A stretch of 64,000 nucleotides of DNA from an uncultured Gammaproteobacteria bacterium (GTDB lineage Bacteria > Pseudomonadota > Gammaproteobacteria > JAADHQ01), in the NCBI GenBank assembly GCA_947258655.1, contig CAMYJD010000002.1, forward strand, positions 62,001-126,000, given 5' to 3'. The notes under the pieces were generated by a model, which ran no database searches, was not told where the DNA came from, and saw only the letters and a program-made list of their open reading frames with translations. Numbering within the stretch: position 1 is the stretch's first letter; each line of letters opens with the position of its first letter. This document shows, piece after piece, positions 38,281 through 63,374 of this stretch. A program made the position numbers and the translations under genes.

Positions 38281-41016
38281 TTATTTACGATGTTTCTTAA
38301 GAGTTGGCTGATGGCGTGTTTGGCTCCCTTCAGTCACTGGCCGCTTGTTTTTTATTAAAGTCAGATGGCTGCGCTCCGAGTTGTCGGGGTTATCTTTTTG
38401 TGATTGTAAATACAAACAATCACTTTTAGCCAGCAAGTTCGCGCGTAACCGGGGCAGACTGCTGACGACCGACATGATCATGGCCGCCAGGTAAGGTATC
38501 GACAGCACGATCAGCACAGTCACCCATAGTTGCAGATCCGCTGTCTCCAGGCCGTGAACCCGGGCAATAGCAACAGCGCCCAGTAGCAGAGCTATTCCAA
38601 TCAGCGTTTCTTCACGGGCGGCTGCCAGGGCCTTCAGGATTCCCTGGGTATCTGCCATTTTAGGTGTGCGGAAAAACCCTTCCTTGTTGCTGAACAGGCC
38701 CGCTAACATGGCGCTGGCGATGGTATGTGACAGCGACAGGCCAGCCAATGCAGCGGCCAGGGTCTGTCTGACCGTACCGACAATTCGTATGCCCTGATAC
38801 AGAAAGATGATCTTGAGCAGTTTGAACGTGAACAGGGTCAATGGCAGGATCGAGAATATAACCAGCGGTGGATCTATGCTTTGCGGCAGGGCCACCATTA
38901 CAACTGACCATGCAAGTGCCCCAAGTGTAAACACAAGATTGATACCATCACTGATCCAGGGTAGCCATCCAGCGACAAAATGGTAGCGTTGTCCGGACGT
39001 AAGTGCAGCGCGCTTACCCAGTAACAGGGCGCCGGCATGCCGGCGCAGGATCTGCATGGCACCATAGGCCCAGCGGTAGCGTTGTTTCTTGTAACTGCTG
39101 AAGGTGTCCGGCATCAGGCCGCGTCCATAGCTTTGTTGCGTATACAGGGTCTGGTGGCCGGCCTTCATGATACGCAGGCCAAGATCTGCATCTTCGGTAA
39201 TACACCACTCGCCCCATGCGCTCACTTCCTCAAGAACACTGCGACGCACCAGGGTCATCGTACCATGCTGGATAATCGCATTGCGTTCATTGCGGGTCAC
39301 CATGCCAAGATGAAAGAAACCACGGTATTCGGCATGACACATGGCCTTGAAGGCATTTTCACAACCGTCGCGGTAATCCTGTGGTGCCTGTACTATCGCG
39401 ATATCCCGGTTACTGAACTCCGGGACCAGTTCGCGTAGCCAGTTGGAGTCAACGATATAGTCGCTGTCGATGACGGCAATGATTTCGGCATTGGGCGCCG
39501 TTTGTTGTAATGCAAAATTCAATGCTCCGGCCTTGAAGCCGGGCAGGGGATTACGATGATAAAAGTGGAATTGTCCGCCAAGAACACGGCAATGCCGCTC
39601 AACCGGTTTCCATATGTCCTCGTCGGGTGTGTTATTGTCGACAACAATGACTTCATATCTAGGATAGTCAAGCCGGGCAAGCGCATCGAGTGTCTCCATG
39701 ACCATATCTGCCGGCTCGTTATGTATAGGTACGTGGATAGACACCATCGGTAATTTATCGTCAGTCACGGTCTGGCGTCTGGCCTTGCGATGATGATCTC
39801 TGACCCATAATGCTTCGGCCCACTCATGTGCCTCTACGAGTAAAACGACTATCAAACCGACTACACTGAGTGCCATCAGAATACCAACAACAATACTACT
39901 GATTGTGAAGTACTGATGCGTATAGTTGTAGGTGATCCACACAACAGCCGTGATCGCAGCATAGGTTACCAGGGCCAGAAAACCGCGGCCTCGAGGCTGC
40001 AGGCGACCGCTATCGACCAGTAATATGGCAAATGCGAATGTGGCTACCAGTACACTGATCAGGGCCAGATGACGCCATTCGGGGATATTGACGATAGGTT
40101 CCGTGAACGTGAATTTGGGCTGACGATGGACATTGTAAACTCCCCAGTAGGAGCCGACATCACCTTCATAGACTTCCCGTTTCCACAATTGATCGAAGGC
40201 CTCCATGACATAATAGGTGTAGTCCTCTATCTCGGCATGATCGAGAAAGCGGCGCAGGAAGGTGGCCTCATTTGCTGGAGATGCGACGGCTGATTTGCGC
40301 GTGCGCCCATTACTGGGCCAGCCGACTTCGGCTATGACAATCGGCTTGTCTGGAAAGCGTACGCGTAACTCGCCCATACGGCTGGCGACATAATCCACGG
40401 CCTTGTCGACGTGGATACCCTCCCAGTATGGCAGCATATGTACGGCGATATAGTCTACATGCTCTGCCAGTTGCGGGTACTTGAGCCAGATATGCCAGGG
40501 TTCGGCAGTACTGACCGGCATATCCAGGGCCCTGCGGACACGGTCGAGGTCCGCGATCAGGGAATCGATAGCGACATCACCACGAAGCAGGGCCTCGTTA
40601 CCGATCATGACCCGTACAACATTGCGGTAATTGGCCCGTGCGATGTTAATGAGTTTGTTGATTTCCTGAGTGTTTTTGTCGGCATCAGTATCGATCCATG
40701 CACCCAGTGCCACATTGATACCATATTGATGCGCCAGTCGTGGAATCTCGCCCATAACTTTATCGACTGTATAGGTACGCACTGCATGTGTCTTGCCGGC
40801 CAGTAATTTCAGGTCAGCATTGAGCTTGTCCGGATGTGGCAGTCGACCCTGTAGTGGATCATGCTCTTCCCACATCGGTGAAAAGGAAAAGCCCTGAATC
40901 ACAGCAGGCCATGGCGGCTCTGATTCCGGTCTGTTAATCAGCCACCACAGGCTCAGGGTCAACGAGGTAACCATGAGGCCAATTAAAAGATTTCCTTTAG
41001 TAAAAAGTTGTCGCAA
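38281..41016 (-). CDS. GH17-like domain fused to family 2 glycosyltransferase (NdvB/NdvC-like)
   Basis: 911 residues. An N-terminal membrane segment is followed by a glycoside-hydrolase-17-like domain (GFSFSPMWEEHDPLQG, VMIGNEALLRGD, PIVIAEVGWPSNGRTR). Then come membrane segments and a GT2 domain with VIDSDYIV (DxD), WCITEDADLGLR (TED) and KKQRYRWAYGAM (QxxRW), and more membrane segments. This is the layout of the cyclic beta-1,3 glucan synthases of Bradyrhizobium and Pseudomonas. The product here is probably a periplasmic beta-glucan. Confidence 0.88.
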   Translation of the reverse strand: MRQLFTKGNLLIGLMVTSLTLSLWWLINRPESEPPWPAVIQGFSFSPMWEEHDPLQGRLPHPDKLNADLKLLAGKTHAVRTYTVDKVMGEIPRLAHQYGINVALGAWIDTDADKNTQEINKLINIARANYRNVVRVMIGNEALLRGDVAIDSLIADLDRVRRALDMPVSTAEPWHIWLKYPQLAEHVDYIAVHMLPYWEGIHVDKAVDYVASRMGELRVRFPDKPIVIAEVGWPSNGRTRKSAVASPANEATFLRRFLDHAEIEDYTYYVMEAFDQLWKREVYEGDVGSYWGVYNVHRQPKFTFTEPIVNIPEWRHLALISVLVATFAFAILLVDSGRLQPRGRGFLALVTYAAITAVVWITYNYTHQYFTISSIVVGILMALSVVGLIVVLLVEAHEWAEALWVRDHHRKARRQTVTDDKLPMVSIHVPIHNEPADMVMETLDALARLDYPRYEVIVVDNNTPDEDIWKPVERHCRVLGGQFHFYHRNPLPGFKAGALNFALQQTAPNAEIIAVIDSDYIVDSNWLRELVPEFSNRDIAIVQAPQDYRDGCENAFKAMCHAEYRGFFHLGMVTRNERNAIIQHGTMTLVRRSVLEEVSAWGEWCITEDADLGLRIMKAGHQTLYTQQSYGRGLMPDTFSSYKKQRYRWAYGAMQILRRHAGALLLGKRAALTSGQRYHFVAGWLPWISDGINLVFTLGALAWSVVMVALPQSIDPPLVIFSILPLTLFTFKLLKIIFLYQGIRIVGTVRQTLAAALAGLSLSHTIASAMLAGLFSNKEGFFRTPKMADTQGILKALAAAREETLIGIALLLGAVAIARVHGLETADLQLWVTVLIVLSIPYLAAMIMSVVSSLPRLRANLLAKSDCLYLQSQKDNPDNSERSHLTLIKNKRPVTEGSQTRHQPTLKKHRK

Positions 41017-56543: not shown

Positions 56544-57329
56544 ATGGTTTCTGCTAAATTTGAAAAGGCCGCACTCGCTTACCTCCAGCGCGGATGGTCG
56601 GTGATTCCGATGCGCAAGCGAGACAAGCGTCCTGCTATAAGCTGGCAGGGATTCCAGAGCGTACGCGCCAGCGAACAGCAGGTGCGGGATTGGTACCGAC
56701 GCTGGCCTGATGCCAATGTGGGCATCGTAACCGGCGTTATATCCGGCCTCGTCGTGCTGGATGTGGATACCCGGCATGGTGGTGATGACAGTCTGAAACG
56801 TCTTGAACTCGAAAACTCGCCACTACCACAGACGCTTGTGGTCATTAGCGGCGGTGGTGGACGTCATTATTATTTTGCTCATCCTGGCGGTAGCGTACGT
56901 AACCGGGTCGGGATTGCGCCAGGCATCGATCTGCGCGCTGATGGCGGCTGCATTGTCGCACCGCCATCGGTGCATCCCTGTGGCAGGGAATATCAATGGG
57001 TCAAGGATTGTGCGCCCGAGCAGGTTACATTGGCAGCGTTGCCAGACTGGCTGCGACAAATATTAGCCAAGACAGCGGAACACAGCAGCCATACGCTGGA
57101 TTATTGGCGTCAGCTGTTGCATGTAGGTGTTGAAACAGGTGAACGCAACAATACCATAGCCTCCATCAGTGGCCATTTGTTATGGCATGGGGTGGATCCG
57201 GATGTGGTCCTGGAATTGATGTTGTGCTGGAATCGTACCCGCTGCCGCCCAGCTCTGGATGATGCGGAAGTTGTGCGCACGGTGAACAGTATCACGCGTA
57301 TGCATGAACAACATGAGCAGGACATGTAA
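56544..57329 (+). CDS. stand-alone primase-polymerase (PrimPol) with PriCT
   Basis: 261 residues. Archaeo-eukaryotic primase fold: VLDVDTRHGG (DxD), the SGGGGRHYYF (sxH) motif and GIDLRADGGCIVAPPSVH (third acidic residue). A PriCT-1-like helical tail follows (NTIASISGHLLWHGV). All metal-site residues are intact. Such domains are normally fused to a helicase on plasmids, phages and other mobile elements; here there is no helicase and no other mobile gene, which is unusual. Confidence 0.88.
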   Translation: MVSAKFEKAALAYLQRGWSVIPMRKRDKRPAISWQGFQSVRASEQQVRDWYRRWPDANVGIVTGVISGLVVLDVDTRHGGDDSLKRLELENSPLPQTLVVISGGGGRHYYFAHPGGSVRNRVGIAPGIDLRADGGCIVAPPSVHPCGREYQWVKDCAPEQVTLAALPDWLRQILAKTAEHSSHTLDYWRQLLHVGVETGERNNTIASISGHLLWHGVDPDVVLELMLCWNRTRCRPALDDAEVVRTVNSITRMHEQHEQDM

Positions 57330-57468: not shown

Positions 57469-57726
57469 ATGATCCCGATACATGAACTATTGAATCGTAT
57501 CCGCTGGGATAAGGATTATGGTGATGCTGAATTCGTTATCGGATATTATGATCGCATCGAGGAGCGGATAATTACTGTGCCACTAAAGTCGCTCTATTTT
57601 GATAGCGAAGATCATTTTGATTTCGAGTTGGTAGATGACGAGGGCGTCATTCATACGATTCCCTTACATCGCATCAGACAGGTATATCGTGACGGTGACC
57701 TGGTATGGGAACGCAAGCAGGGGTGA
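57469..57726 (+). CDS. DUF504 (MJ1316-like) protein
   Basis: 85 residues: MIPIHELLNRIRWDKDYGDA, IGYYDRIEERIITVPL and the C-terminal HTIPLHRIRQVYRDGDLVWER define DUF504. The MJ1316 form of this domain is predicted in RNA repair and is fused to RNA-active enzymes in other organisms. Here it stands alone and precedes the kinase/nuclease fusion by 10 bases. Direct function unproven. Confidence 0.9.
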   Translation: MIPIHELLNRIRWDKDYGDAEFVIGYYDRIEERIITVPLKSLYFDSEDHFDFELVDDEGVIHTIPLHRIRQVYRDGDLVWERKQG

Positions 57727-57736
57727 TTCCGGTGGC

Positions 57737-59767
57737 ATGGCTCCGTATTCTGTTATGAATTCAATAAGACGACAACATGGTTTTCCGTTACTGAGCGCCA
57801 ATGTCGCGGATATTGTTGCGACGGTATTGCAACAGGATCAGCGTGTACTACTGTACGGTGCAGCCGGTACAGGTAAGTCTACGCTGGCAACAAGTATGGC
57901 GCAGCACCTGGCACAGGAAAATCGCCGCTGTAGTTGTATCAGTGCCGACCCGGGATCGCCACTAATGGGCATGCCGGGTACACTGTCACTGGGGCAATGG
58001 GTGCAGGACGCATGGCACATAGAAGAATATTCACCCCTGTGCACCCTCGATGCGGGTCGCTTCCGTTTACCATTGGTAGCGGCATTGGGGCACTTGTTGG
58101 ATCACGCCAGGGACGGCGTGATATTGGTTGACGGACCCGGTGTCGTTCGTGGTGTGGCCGGGCGTGAATTGCTTGAAGGTCTGGTGTCGGTGGTCAAGGC
58201 TGATGTGGTACTGGTGGTCTCGATAACAGATAAAATCCCACCGCTGCTGGCAGAATTGAATGCCCTGGCGTCGGCAATAGCTGCAGAGATCTATATCGTA
58301 CCGGCCGCGGCAGCAGCCATGCGCCCGGGCAAACGGGTGCGCGCGCGACGACGCACCGAACAGTGGGACCAATACCTGGGCGATCGCATCAGGCAGGATG
58401 TTGATCTTGAAAAAGTCAGTATCATCGGCACGCCACCACCGCGAGAGCAGGCGCATGCCTGGACAGGCAGGCAGGTCGCATTGCTGCATTCGCAACATAC
58501 CCGGGTCATGGGCGAGGTGCTACAACTCAAGGGAAACTGTCTGACGCTGATACTGCCTGCCCGTGTCAGTGATACAGATGCGCTGTTAATCCGTGATGCA
58601 GTACGCACGGCTGACGGCTACGTGGAAACGGCCATGCCCTGGGCTGCAGCGCAACTTGGCTATATACCGCCGGCAGATGTGTTGCCATCTGCCGCAGGCA
58701 GTAGCGGGCCACGTCTGGTAGGGCGGGTCGGAAACGTCGATGTGGCCATGATCAACGGAGTGTTTGGTGATCCGTTGTTACACATACGCCTGCGTCATCA
58801 GCGGCGCAGCCTGTTGTTCGATCTGGGTAGCGGCGAACGCTTGTCTGCGCGTATTGCCCATCAGGTGAGCGATGTATTTATCTCCCACGCACATCTTGAC
58901 CACATCAGCGGATTTGTGTGGCTGCTGCGTTCACGTATTGGTGAATTCCCTGCTTGCCGTTTATATGGCCCGCCTGGGCTGGCGCGACATATCGCAGGTT
59001 TTATACAAGGTGTGTTGTGGGATCGCGTAACTGTTCCCGGCCCGGAATTCGAGGTCCACGAGTATGACGGCAATATCCTACGCAGTTTTCTGCTGCAGGC
59101 GACCCGGCCGGAGCCGGAGTTGTTACACGAGCAATCTGTGACAGATGGTATCTTGCGTCAGGAATCCGGATTTACGATACGCGCGGTATTGCTGGATCAT
59201 TGCGGTACCGAGGTCGTGGCATACGCCTTTGAACCTGATCAGCAGATCAATGTGCGCAAGGACCGTCTCTTGGCGAGGGGATTGCAACCGGGTGCCTGGC
59301 TGAATGAATTAAAGCAGTATGTGGCAAGCGCAAACGACAGCACCAGGATTCGCCTGCCTGACGGCAGCGACGCGTCGGTGGCAGAACTGGCAAGCGAGCT
59401 ATTGCTGATCAGTGCAGGTAAAAAGTTGGTGTATGCCACTGATCTGGCCGACACGCAGAATAATCGCCAGCGTCTTGTTGACCTCGCCCGTAACGCACAT
59501 ACGTTTTTCTGTGAGGCAGCGTTTGCCGAGGCAGAGGCCGACAACGCCTTACGCAATGGTCATTTAACAACACGTGCCTGTGGTGAAATTGCAGTGCTGG
59601 CCGGTGTCGGTCGACTGGTGCCGTTTCATTTCTCACGGCGCTATACGGAAGATCCGTTGCAGATTTATCATGAACTGAAAACGGTCTGCCCTTGCGTTAT
59701 GATACCAATGTCAGCGCAACTATTCGAGACGAGCCGCGTAATACCTGACGATGCAGAAATCGTATAG
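57737..59767 (+). CDS. Clp1-type polynucleotide kinase fused to RNase Z-type metallo-beta-lactamase
   Basis: 676 residues from ATG 57737. Residues ~1-200 form a Clp1_P kinase: Walker A LYGAAGTGKSTLAT (residues 41-49), then SADPGSPLMGMPGTLSLG and VDGPGVVRGVAGRELLEG. From residue ~335 an RNase Z-type metallo-beta-lactamase follows: SHAHLDHISG (384-389), YATDLADT (D569), GHLTTRACGE (H609) and PFHFSRRY (H631), the RNase Z order. It should bind two zinc ions. Clp1 kinases add phosphate to RNA 5'-OH ends; RNase Z cuts tRNA 3' trailers. The union suggests that one protein handles both ends of an RNA. Confidence 0.85.
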   Translation: MAPYSVMNSIRRQHGFPLLSANVADIVATVLQQDQRVLLYGAAGTGKSTLATSMAQHLAQENRRCSCISADPGSPLMGMPGTLSLGQWVQDAWHIEEYSPLCTLDAGRFRLPLVAALGHLLDHARDGVILVDGPGVVRGVAGRELLEGLVSVVKADVVLVVSITDKIPPLLAELNALASAIAAEIYIVPAAAAAMRPGKRVRARRRTEQWDQYLGDRIRQDVDLEKVSIIGTPPPREQAHAWTGRQVALLHSQHTRVMGEVLQLKGNCLTLILPARVSDTDALLIRDAVRTADGYVETAMPWAAAQLGYIPPADVLPSAAGSSGPRLVGRVGNVDVAMINGVFGDPLLHIRLRHQRRSLLFDLGSGERLSARIAHQVSDVFISHAHLDHISGFVWLLRSRIGEFPACRLYGPPGLARHIAGFIQGVLWDRVTVPGPEFEVHEYDGNILRSFLLQATRPEPELLHEQSVTDGILRQESGFTIRAVLLDHCGTEVVAYAFEPDQQINVRKDRLLARGLQPGAWLNELKQYVASANDSTRIRLPDGSDASVAELASELLLISAGKKLVYATDLADTQNNRQRLVDLARNAHTFFCEAAFAEAEADNALRNGHLTTRACGEIAVLAGVGRLVPFHFSRRYTEDPLQIYHELKTVCPCVMIPMSAQLFETSRVIPDDAEIV

Positions 59768-61442: not shown

Positions 61443-63374
61443 ATGATGTTCACATATAAAGACATACTGGGCCAGGATGTGATCAAAAACTGTTTATTGA
61501 TGCTCTTTATCCTGTTTTACCCAGCCTTTGCCGTGGCCCAGAATCCTGATTTGCGTCTAATCTATTCATCTGACTTTCAGGGTGAACTGAAACCCTGTGG
61601 TTGTAGTGAGGCCGGTAATCTGGGTGGTGTTCTGCGTCGGGCGACGAAATTCGAAGCACTCAGACAGGCGGATATAGAAACGCTGTTTGTTAGTGCCGGC
61701 GATATTCTCGGGCCGGTAGACGAGCAGGGCGATATAAAAAACCGTTACATGCTGAAGGCCCATGGCTACCTTGGTCTGGATGCTCTGTTGCCAGGTGAAA
61801 GAGATCTGCTTTACCCGCCTGATGTATTGTCCAGCTATGGTCTGCCGTGGCTACTGACCAATGGTGTCGATACATCGCCTTTTCCCAGGCATCGATCCAG
61901 AAATTTAGGTTCGGGCCAGCGCGTGTTGTTGCTGGGGTTGCTAGATCCGGGTATGCAAGCCAGGGCCGATAAAAAATGGCTGACTGAACCCGGCAAGGCC
62001 CTGGAACATGAATTGGCAAAGGTAAAGGCAAGTAAAGCCGATGTTGTCATTCTAATGTTGCATGGAAAGCCGGAGTTTGCGCAGCGCTTTCGCAGACATG
62101 CGCTGATTGATGTGATTGTCCGTGGTCATCTGGATGAACCCGTCAGCACTGCGCCGACATCGCCTATCCCGCCGATACTCGCAGCAGGCCACCGTGGCCA
62201 ACGTATCGGTATCGCGAATCTGCAAATTACCGGAAGTACACGTGTTATCGATAATAAAATAATCCCGTTGCCATCGAGTATAAAGGATCATGCCGGACTT
62301 GCCGGGCTTTATCAGCAATACAATCGTGATATTGCCGCCTGGTACAGGATAAAAACGCAACAGATGAAAGGGGCCGCGGACATGTCCGGCCCGTATGCCG
62401 GCGCAGCGATTTGCCAGCAATGCCATCAGGACATACATGCTCAGTGGCAGGGCAGCCGGCATGCCCATGCCCTGGAAAGCCTTGTCAAAGAGAATAAGGA
62501 TGCTGATCCCGAATGCCTGTTATGTCACAACACGGGTATGGGAACTGCAGGCGGATTCATATCTCCGGTAATCACGCCCGACCATACAGATGTTCAATGC
62601 GAGGCCTGCCATGGTGCTGCGCGTAAACATGCCGAATATCCCTTACAGAACAAGGCCGGGGCAGCGCTTGGTCTGTGTACTACCTGTCATACCCGTGAAA
62701 CCAGTCCCGCATTCAAGCTTTCCGAATATTTCCCGAAAATAGCACATGCCAGCAAGCAAGCTGCACCGATCCACAGGCAGTCCGTATCTGCTATTACGGG
62801 TTTGTATGACGTTCTAGAGTCAGAACGGGCCATTATTGATACTGATGCCGTGGTCTTAACTGAATTTTTTAATTTTTATTGCAGCCGTTGTTATGTTTTC
62901 AGTACCAGCTGGTCAGAGCAGTCCAAGACCTTGCCAAAACAGGTCAGGCATCGGCAGATACCGATTATTTTCGGCGATTCACAACAGCCCTGGGCTGCAT
63001 TGGCCTACCTGGTCGCAGAACAACACGGTAAAGGGGATGTGCTCAAGGATGCCATTTTCAAGGCCAGGTTTGAACATAATGCCGATATTGGGCAGAGACA
63101 GGTCATCATCGATATCGCCGGGCAATTCAATCTGGCTTCACAGGTAAGGGATGCTTTATATAACGATGATAGCGGCATCGAAAAAAAGTTTGCCCAGGGC
63201 ATGCAGTTGAAGCATCAATACGATATACATGTTACGCCAACGATTATGATCAATGACAACCTGCGCGTGTTGCCGAAGCACACCGGCAACAACACCAATC
63301 TGATGGTAGATAACCTTGTTGAAATCCTGCTTGACATCCAATGCCGCCAATATGCACTTTGCGCAGCCAAATGA
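61443..63374 (+). CDS. exported metallophosphoesterase-tetraheme-DsbA-like fusion
   Basis: 643 residues. Signal peptide (LLMLFILFYPAFAVAQ). Residues ~35-280 resemble a 5'-nucleotidase/calcineurin phosphoesterase (YSSDFQGELKPCGCSEAGNLGG, SAGDILGP, DVVILMLHGKPEF). Residues ~320-430 have four CxxCH haem sites: CQQCH, CLLCH, CEACH and CTTCH, in cytochrome c554 style. The end is DsbA-like, with YCSRCYVFS in place of CPHC and VTPTIMIN as the cis-proline loop. The substrate is unknown; a periplasmic sulphur or nitrogen redox step is possible. Confidence 0.82.
   Translation: MMFTYKDILGQDVIKNCLLMLFILFYPAFAVAQNPDLRLIYSSDFQGELKPCGCSEAGNLGGVLRRATKFEALRQADIETLFVSAGDILGPVDEQGDIKNRYMLKAHGYLGLDALLPGERDLLYPPDVLSSYGLPWLLTNGVDTSPFPRHRSRNLGSGQRVLLLGLLDPGMQARADKKWLTEPGKALEHELAKVKASKADVVILMLHGKPEFAQRFRRHALIDVIVRGHLDEPVSTAPTSPIPPILAAGHRGQRIGIANLQITGSTRVIDNKIIPLPSSIKDHAGLAGLYQQYNRDIAAWYRIKTQQMKGAADMSGPYAGAAICQQCHQDIHAQWQGSRHAHALESLVKENKDADPECLLCHNTGMGTAGGFISPVITPDHTDVQCEACHGAARKHAEYPLQNKAGAALGLCTTCHTRETSPAFKLSEYFPKIAHASKQAAPIHRQSVSAITGLYDVLESERAIIDTDAVVLTEFFNFYCSRCYVFSTSWSEQSKTLPKQVRHRQIPIIFGDSQQPWAALAYLVAEQHGKGDVLKDAIFKARFEHNADIGQRQVIIDIAGQFNLASQVRDALYNDDSGIEKKFAQGMQLKHQYDIHVTPTIMINDNLRVLPKHTGNNTNLMVDNLVEILLDIQCRQYALCAAK

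What the first reader, a model, noticed from the sequence alone, without database searches (positions are those of the whole stretch)
61443..63374. Phosphoesterase, tetraheme cytochrome and DsbA-like domains in one protein
Four CxxCH motifs sit between a 5'-nucleotidase-like domain and a thioredoxin-fold domain with a CSRC site. This combination would join hydrolysis, electron transfer and thiol chemistry. It may handle sulphur or nitrogen compounds in the periplasm. I have no clear precedent.
Basis: partly seen in the sequence, partly recalled or inferred. Interest (0 to 1): 0.68.

Follow-up and report, generated by a model that had tools for sequence, protein, structure and literature searches.

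The report
Thiol–heme protein fused to DsbA
A bacterial periplasmic protein joins a dead phosphatase fold carrying a redox cysteine pair, a four-heme cytochrome and a DsbA thiol enzyme in one chain; in other phyla the first two parts and the DsbA are separate neighbouring genes, which gives the first clue to what an unexplained (seleno)protein family works with.

Summary
The ORF 61443-63374 (+, 643 aa) is real and has the three parts described. Two of them are a known combination. Residues ~37-436 resemble NCBIfam NF041198, "UshA-like (seleno)protein": a metallophosphoesterase fold plus a cytochrome-c554-like tetraheme domain. The phosphoesterase site is degenerate (DxH His and both GNHE residues lost), so hydrolysis is unlikely. 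The invariant feature is PCGC; its second Cys (C54) is an in-frame TGA (selenocysteine) in at least 27 relatives.

The new part is the C-terminal DsbA domain (C480-S-R-C483, Thr-cisPro). It is not an assembly join: another gammaproteobacterial MAG has the same fusion (46% identity). In Nitrospinota, Nitrospirota and Deltaproteobacteria the halves are separate adjacent genes. In 120 genomes of one Nitrospirota class the halves co-occur (36 both, 2+4 alone, 78 neither; adjacent in 32). Fused and adjacent DsbAs form their own clade.

Best reading: a periplasmic thiol-to-heme electron relay whose CGC/CGU pair exchanges electrons with a dedicated DsbA. Direction is unproven. Absence of DsbB/VKOR in the host genome and a DsbB anticorrelation in Gammaproteobacteria favour DsbA oxidation; co-occurrence with DsbB/VKOR in Nitrospirota argues against simple replacement.

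The parts
61443..63374 (+). whole fused gene, 643 aa
   Evidence: open frame without stop; same architecture in L062 5875-7878
61443..61538 (+). probable signal peptide (residues 1-32)
   Evidence: hydrophobic N-terminus NCLLMLFILFYPAFAVA read from the sequence; not run through a predictor
61551..62327 (+). UshA/5'-nucleotidase-like (metallophosphoesterase-fold) domain, residues ~37-295, degenerate active site
   Evidence: NF041198; family profile vs venom 5'-nucleotidase E 1e-29; ligand columns
61593..61604 (+). PCGC motif, residues 51-54; C54 is the position of selenocysteine in relatives
   Evidence: C52 G53 C54 invariant in 44-member alignment; in-frame TGA at this codon in at least 27 relatives
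61797..61802 (+). residues E119-R120 in place of the catalytic Asn-His (GNHE) of 5'-nucleotidases
   Evidence: alignment columns
62388..62750 (+). cytochrome c554-like tetraheme domain, residues 316-436, distal-ligand candidates H340, H396, H435
   Evidence: Pfam PF13435 E 1.1e-14; four CxxCH; invariant H340 and H396, near-invariant H435
62751..62807 (+). linker where the separate genes were joined; the stop codon, intergenic gap and DsbA signal peptide of the two-gene form are absent
   Evidence: alignment of the fused domain to mature neighbour DsbAs
62808..63338 (+). DsbA-like thioredoxin-fold domain, residues ~456-632
   Evidence: Pfam PF01323; PDB DsbA hits; clade with neighbour DsbAs
62880..62891 (+). 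CSRC active site, residues 480-483
   Evidence: sequence; both Cys invariant in the 15-member DsbA subfamily
63234..63239 (+). Thr598-cisPro599 loop (TcP rather than the usual VcP)
   Evidence: T and P invariant in fused/paired DsbAs

Best explanation
It is a periplasmic thiol-to-heme electron relay, made by fusing two proteins that elsewhere are encoded side by side. SHOWN by sequence: the UshA-like fold has lost key phosphoesterase residues and carries an invariant CGC pair whose second Cys is selenocysteine in relatives; it is joined to a four-heme domain; a specific DsbA subfamily is its adjacent or fused partner. INFERRED: C52/C54 exchange a disulfide with the DsbA CxxC (C480/C483), and the two electrons pass one at a time between the CGC pair and the tetraheme domain, then to or from periplasmic cytochromes. 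The more likely direction (about 60:40) is oxidative, i.e. it helps keep a DsbA-type enzyme oxidised without a quinone-linked DsbB; the reverse (reductive) direction is not excluded.
For: C54 aligns with in-frame TGA codons in at least 27 relatives and C52-G53-C54 is invariant in 44 members. The same fusion occurs in a second MAG at 46% identity. In 13 loci of other phyla the two halves are adjacent same-strand genes, gaps -7 to +111 nt, with otherwise unconserved neighbours. In 120 genomes of one Nitrospirota class the halves co-occur: 36 both, 2 and 4 alone, 78 neither, adjacent in 32 of 36. Fused plus adjacent DsbAs are one clade, apart from the host's other DsbAs and from DsbA paralogs in pair genomes. 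Host genome, 98.7% complete: no DsbB, no VKOR, three DsbA-family matches; 11 of 15 fused/pair genomes lack both; in two of them (L102, L109) the paired DsbA is the only PF01323 match. Gammaproteobacteria with the UshA-like tetraheme gene: strong DsbB match in 0 of 40 against 192 of 329 without. Thr before the cis-Pro in 15/15 fused/paired DsbAs, in 16/25 DsbAs of solo-gene gammaproteobacteria, in 0/17 of the others; this residue affects redox potential and partner choice (PMC4460558, PMC4152235).
Against: In the Nitrospirota class the gene is positively associated with DsbB or VKOR (18/38 with against 9/82 without), so it is not a simple substitute for them. The three same-genus genomes also lack DsbB but lack this gene too, so DsbB loss there does not depend on it. 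Eleven of the 40 gammaproteobacterial carriers have a divergent DsbB-family match. None of the association tests is corrected for shared ancestry, and the Thr-cisPro one was post hoc. TcP also occurs in reductases and isomerases. No structure could be predicted, so the distance between CGC, hemes and CSRC is unknown. Heme attachment, redox potentials and direction are untested.
Confidence: 0.5

Rival explanations
1. Reductive relay: low-potential hemes reduce the CGC/CGU pair, which keeps the DsbA-like partner reduced so that it acts as a periplasmic disulfide reductase or isomerase, for example in cytochrome c maturation or repair.
For: Thr-cisPro is typical of DsbC, DsbG and CcmG-type reductants (PMC4460558); the gene co-occurs with DsbB/VKOR in Nitrospirota, as expected if the oxidative path is separate; variable CxxC dipeptides.
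Against: Anticorrelation with canonical DsbB in Gammaproteobacteria; two genomes in which the paired DsbA is the only DsbA-family match and DsbB/VKOR are absent.
Confidence: 0.25
2. Small-molecule enzyme: the former phosphoesterase pocket with CGC/CGU and hemes acts on an inorganic sulphur, selenium or nitrogen compound (SoxB- or MccA-like chemistry), and the DsbA partner keeps its CGC pair in the right redox state.
For: The fold is related to SoxB (E 2e-13); fused proteins keep four former metal ligands D44, D87, H207, H229; solo and Sec forms exist without linked DsbA; the fourth heme lacks a conserved distal His in fused and paired forms, so it could bind a ligand.
Against: No conserved sulphur- or nitrogen-metabolism neighbours; former ligands mostly not kept in solo and paired forms.
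Confidence: 0.17
3. Three-function enzyme: phosphoester hydrolysis, electron transfer and thiol chemistry together.
For: Domain homology to 5'-nucleotidases.
Against: DxH His and GNHE Asn/His lost, and no match to the C-terminal nucleotide-binding domain of UshA in the Pfam scan.
Confidence: 0.05
4. Assembly artefact joining adjacent genes.
For: In other phyla the two parts are separate adjacent genes.
Against: Independent fusion ORF in another MAG at 46% identity, sister to this one in both trees; in-frame linker without signal peptide.
Confidence: 0.01

Closest known systems
NCBIfam NF041198, UshA-like (seleno)protein (PCGU)
   Same: Same UshA-like + tetraheme order and PCGC/PCGU motif over residues ~37-436.
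   Different: Window scores 198.8 bits, below the curated 275; Cys instead of Sec; extra C-terminal DsbA; no function is known for the family (PMC13188914 and PMC2398784 list it without one).
UshA / CD73 / SoxB metallophosphoesterases
   Same: Same fold by profile.
   Different: Catalytic Asn-His and DxH His replaced; no match to the substrate-binding C-terminal domain.
Cytochrome c554 (Nitrosomonas; PDB 1bvb)
   Same: Four CxxCH and shared spacing, E 1.6e-22 by profile.
   Different: Fused to other domains; no hydroxylamine oxidoreductase context seen.
DsbA (thiol:disulfide interchange protein)
   Same: Fold, CxxC, conserved Glu and cis-Pro.
   Different: CSRC/TcP instead of CPHC/VcP; fused; separate clade.
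Multiheme cytochrome (seleno)proteins such as ExtKL and MccSep (PDB 9wt8)
   Same: Also multiheme cytochromes with Sec.
   Different: Only a short single-heme-region match; different architecture.

Membership tests
NF041198 UshA-like (seleno)protein | score above the curated equivalog cut-off (275 bits) | tested here: not met
   198.8 bits; solo (257.7), paired (259.4, 206.5) and fused (207) relatives are below too; a Sec relative passes with 282.3. So it is described as a divergent relative, not filed as a member.
NF041198 UshA-like (seleno)protein | PCGC/PCGU motif and tetraheme domain after the UshA-like fold | tested here: met
5'-nucleotidase/UshA metallophosphoesterase | metal ligands and catalytic Asn-His (DxH, GD, GNHE, H, GHxH) | tested here: not met
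   window has D,Q / D / E,R / H / H,D
5'-nucleotidase/UshA metallophosphoesterase | C-terminal nucleotide-binding domain (PF02872) | tested here: not met
   no Pfam match; tetraheme domain stands in its place
SoxB thiosulfohydrolase | TIGR04486 above cut-off | tested here: not met
   13.5 bits against 550
Cytochrome c554 family (PF13435) | curated score and four CxxCH | tested here: met
   55.6 bits against 20.8
Cytochrome c554 family (PF13435) | covalent heme attachment | not testable with these tools
   needs heme stain or spectra
DsbA (PF01323) | curated score, CxxC and cis-Pro | tested here: met
   27.9 bits against 25.6; C480, C483, P599
DsbA (PF01323) | canonical CPHC with Val-cisPro | tested here: not met
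   CSRC with Thr-cisPro
DsbB/VKOR functional substitute | found where DsbB/VKOR are missing | tested here: inconclusive
   yes in the host genome and in Gammaproteobacteria, no in Nitrospirota

The most novel reading that the evidence does not exclude
A previously undescribed route of periplasmic disulfide formation: DsbA-type enzymes are re-oxidised by a CGC/CG-Sec + tetraheme protein that passes the electrons to c-type cytochromes, instead of by the quinone-linked DsbB or VKOR; the fused gene is its one-chain form.
Probability: 0.27. Interest if true: 0.85.

Novelty: new variant of a known kind. Interest (0 to 1): 0.56.

Why it matters
The UshA-like (seleno)protein family has been listed since 2008 with no known role. 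The fused protein and the two-gene pairs name a specific partner, a DsbA subfamily, and so turn an orphan selenoprotein family into a testable thiol/heme redox system. If the oxidative direction holds, it would be a third way, besides DsbB and VKOR, to drive disulfide formation outside the cytoplasm, and would help explain bacteria that have DsbA but neither known re-oxidant.

Tried and rejected
First genome-contig scan with the single protein found nothing; the profile scan worked. Long open frames at G063, G343 and G311 looked like further fusions but are long upstream frames or an ordinary 5'-nucleotidase. Gene-neighbourhood search for a pathway: apart from DsbA, neighbours (tsaB-like, GNAT, molybdate-type ABC transporter, SurA-like, response regulators) are not conserved. 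An alignment mixing separate DsbA genes with the UshA part misaligned and was dropped. Plasmids: no match. A first idea that the gene simply replaces DsbB/VKOR was weakened by the Nitrospirota control. A first attempt to tabulate the cis-Pro residue gave an empty result because of a column-indexing fault and was redone.

Full report
THE OBSERVATION. The ORF at 61443-63374 is open from end to end and encodes 643 aa. It carries a hydrophobic N-terminus, a UshA-like region, four CxxCH motifs (0.014 expected from composition) and a C-terminal DsbA-like domain with C480-S-R-C483. The gene lies inside a 181-kb contig of a 98.7%-complete genome.

TWO THIRDS OF IT IS A KNOWN COMBINATION. NCBIfam NF041198, 'UshA-like (seleno)protein', matches the UshA-like and heme parts at E 1.3e-58, though below that model's curated cut-off; other relatives also fall below it and a Sec relative passes. 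Proteins of about 450 aa with just these two parts are common in Gammaproteobacteria: 40 of 369 sampled genomes including the window's own, 20 families. The family appears in selenoproteome surveys without a function (PMC13188914, PMC2398784).

THE PHOSPHOESTERASE IS PROBABLY DEAD AND THE REDOX CENTRE IS PCGC. A family profile hits solved 5'-nucleotidases, UshA and SoxB. With the venom 5'-nucleotidase as guide, the His of DxH is Q in the window and is kept, as far as the tabulated residues show, only in five of the 27 Sec relatives; the Asn-His of GNHE is E-R in the window, and neither residue is among the common ones in any group. The fused proteins keep D44, D87, H207 and H229, so some metal binding is conceivable. 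Pfam finds no C-terminal nucleotide-binding domain. By contrast C52-G53-C54 is invariant in 44 members, with Sec counted as Cys, and at least 27 relatives from Acidobacteriota, Krumholzibacteriota, Myxococcota and others have TGA exactly at the C54 codon within an otherwise open frame. Exchange of Cys and Sec at one position is strong evidence for a redox-active residue. Distal heme-ligand candidates H340, H396 (invariant) and H435 (near-invariant) suggest three bis-His hemes. The His at 420 that is common in the gammaproteobacterial proteins is absent from the window and from most pair forms read in the alignments, so one heme may be open; this is inference.

THE DSBA FUSION IS REAL AND COMES FROM A GENE PAIR. 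The flanking genes are otherwise not conserved. In the fusion the DsbA signal peptide of the two-gene form is gone and the fused domain starts where the mature neighbour starts. In 120 genomes of the class of one pair-bearing Nitrospirota MAG, the two genes co-occur in 36, occur singly in 2 and 4, and both are absent in 78; they are adjacent in 32 of the 36. In the DsbA tree the fused and adjacent proteins form one clade (SH-aLRT 97 in the small set, 87 in the larger), separate from the host's other DsbAs and from DsbA paralogs in pair genomes. In the tree of the UshA-tetraheme part the two fused proteins are sisters (99) and lie outside the gammaproteobacterial solo clade (100), near Nitrospinota and deltaproteobacterial sequences. 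So the fused form was probably acquired from, or shares an origin with, that two-gene lineage rather than arising from the local solo gene; the deeper placement is weakly supported.

WHAT IT MAY DO. Shown: a dedicated DsbA partner, a Sec/Cys redox pair, a tetraheme domain. Inferred: disulfide exchange between CGC and CxxC, with electrons passed to or from the hemes. Evidence on direction is mixed. For oxidation: the host genome has no match to DsbB or VKOR but has three DsbA-family matches; 11 of 15 fused/pair genomes lack both; in two of them the paired DsbA is the only DsbA-family match. Among 369 gammaproteobacterial genomes, carriers of the UshA-tetraheme gene have a strong DsbB match (E below 1e-15) in 0 of 40 cases against 192 of 329 in the rest; counting any match it is 11 of 40 against 210 of 329. 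Thr before the cis-Pro occurs in all 15 fused/paired DsbAs, in 16 of 25 DsbAs of solo-gene carriers, and in 0 of 17 from non-carriers and other DsbAs. One of those 17 is a stand-alone DsbA of the L062 genome, and the host's own stand-alone DsbA, left out of the 25, also has Val. The literature ties this residue to redox potential and partner interaction, and also notes Thr in reductants. Against: in the Nitrospirota class the gene is positively associated with DsbB or VKOR (18/38 against 9/82), and the three same-genus genomes lack both DsbB and this gene. The tests are not corrected for ancestry; the strong/weak DsbB split and the Thr-cisPro test were chosen after seeing the data.

NOVELTY. 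The domain parts and the UshA-tetraheme combination are known. I found no description of the DsbA fusion, the conserved DsbA gene pair, or a partner for this family in the papers searched, which cover open-licence papers only. I rate it a new variant of a known kind, with a specific and testable hypothesis for an orphan (seleno)protein family.

LIMITS. Most related genomes are MAGs, so absences are less certain. Absence of DsbB/VKOR rests on profile searches at E 0.001 (0.01 for the class-wide DsbB search), which can miss divergent copies. TGA is read as Sec by position and context; SECIS elements and Sec machinery were not searched.

Noticed in passing
window 57469-59767 (+): An MJ1316 RNA cyclic-group end-recognition domain gene (57469-57726) overlaps a 710-aa frame joining a CLP1-like P-loop kinase to a metallo-beta-lactamase fold (57635-59767): looks like an RNA-end processing or repair cassette.
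   Followed up: partly
window 56544-57329 (+): Stand-alone prim-pol plus PriCT primase protein (E 7e-47) just upstream of that cassette, perhaps a mobile-element remnant.
   Followed up: no
L178-L204 (gammaproteobacterial DsbAs): DsbAs with CPHC or CSHC but Thr-cisPro occur in 16 of 25 carriers of the solo UshA-tetraheme gene and in none of 17 others: a possible adaptation to a partner other than DsbB.
   Followed up: partly
G079, G205, G054, G083, G307, G039, G198, G212, G073, G202, G130: All DsbB-family matches in UshA-tetraheme carriers are divergent (E 1e-9 to 1e-13); they may be a distinct DsbB subfamily.
   Followed up: no
L095 3595-4935: The paired UshA-like protein of this deltaproteobacterial MAG has five CxxCH motifs instead of four and sits on a long branch.
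   Followed up: no
window 38281-41016 (-): 911-aa frame with a family-2 glycosyltransferase and a weak GH17 match, possibly a glucan synthase.
   Followed up: no
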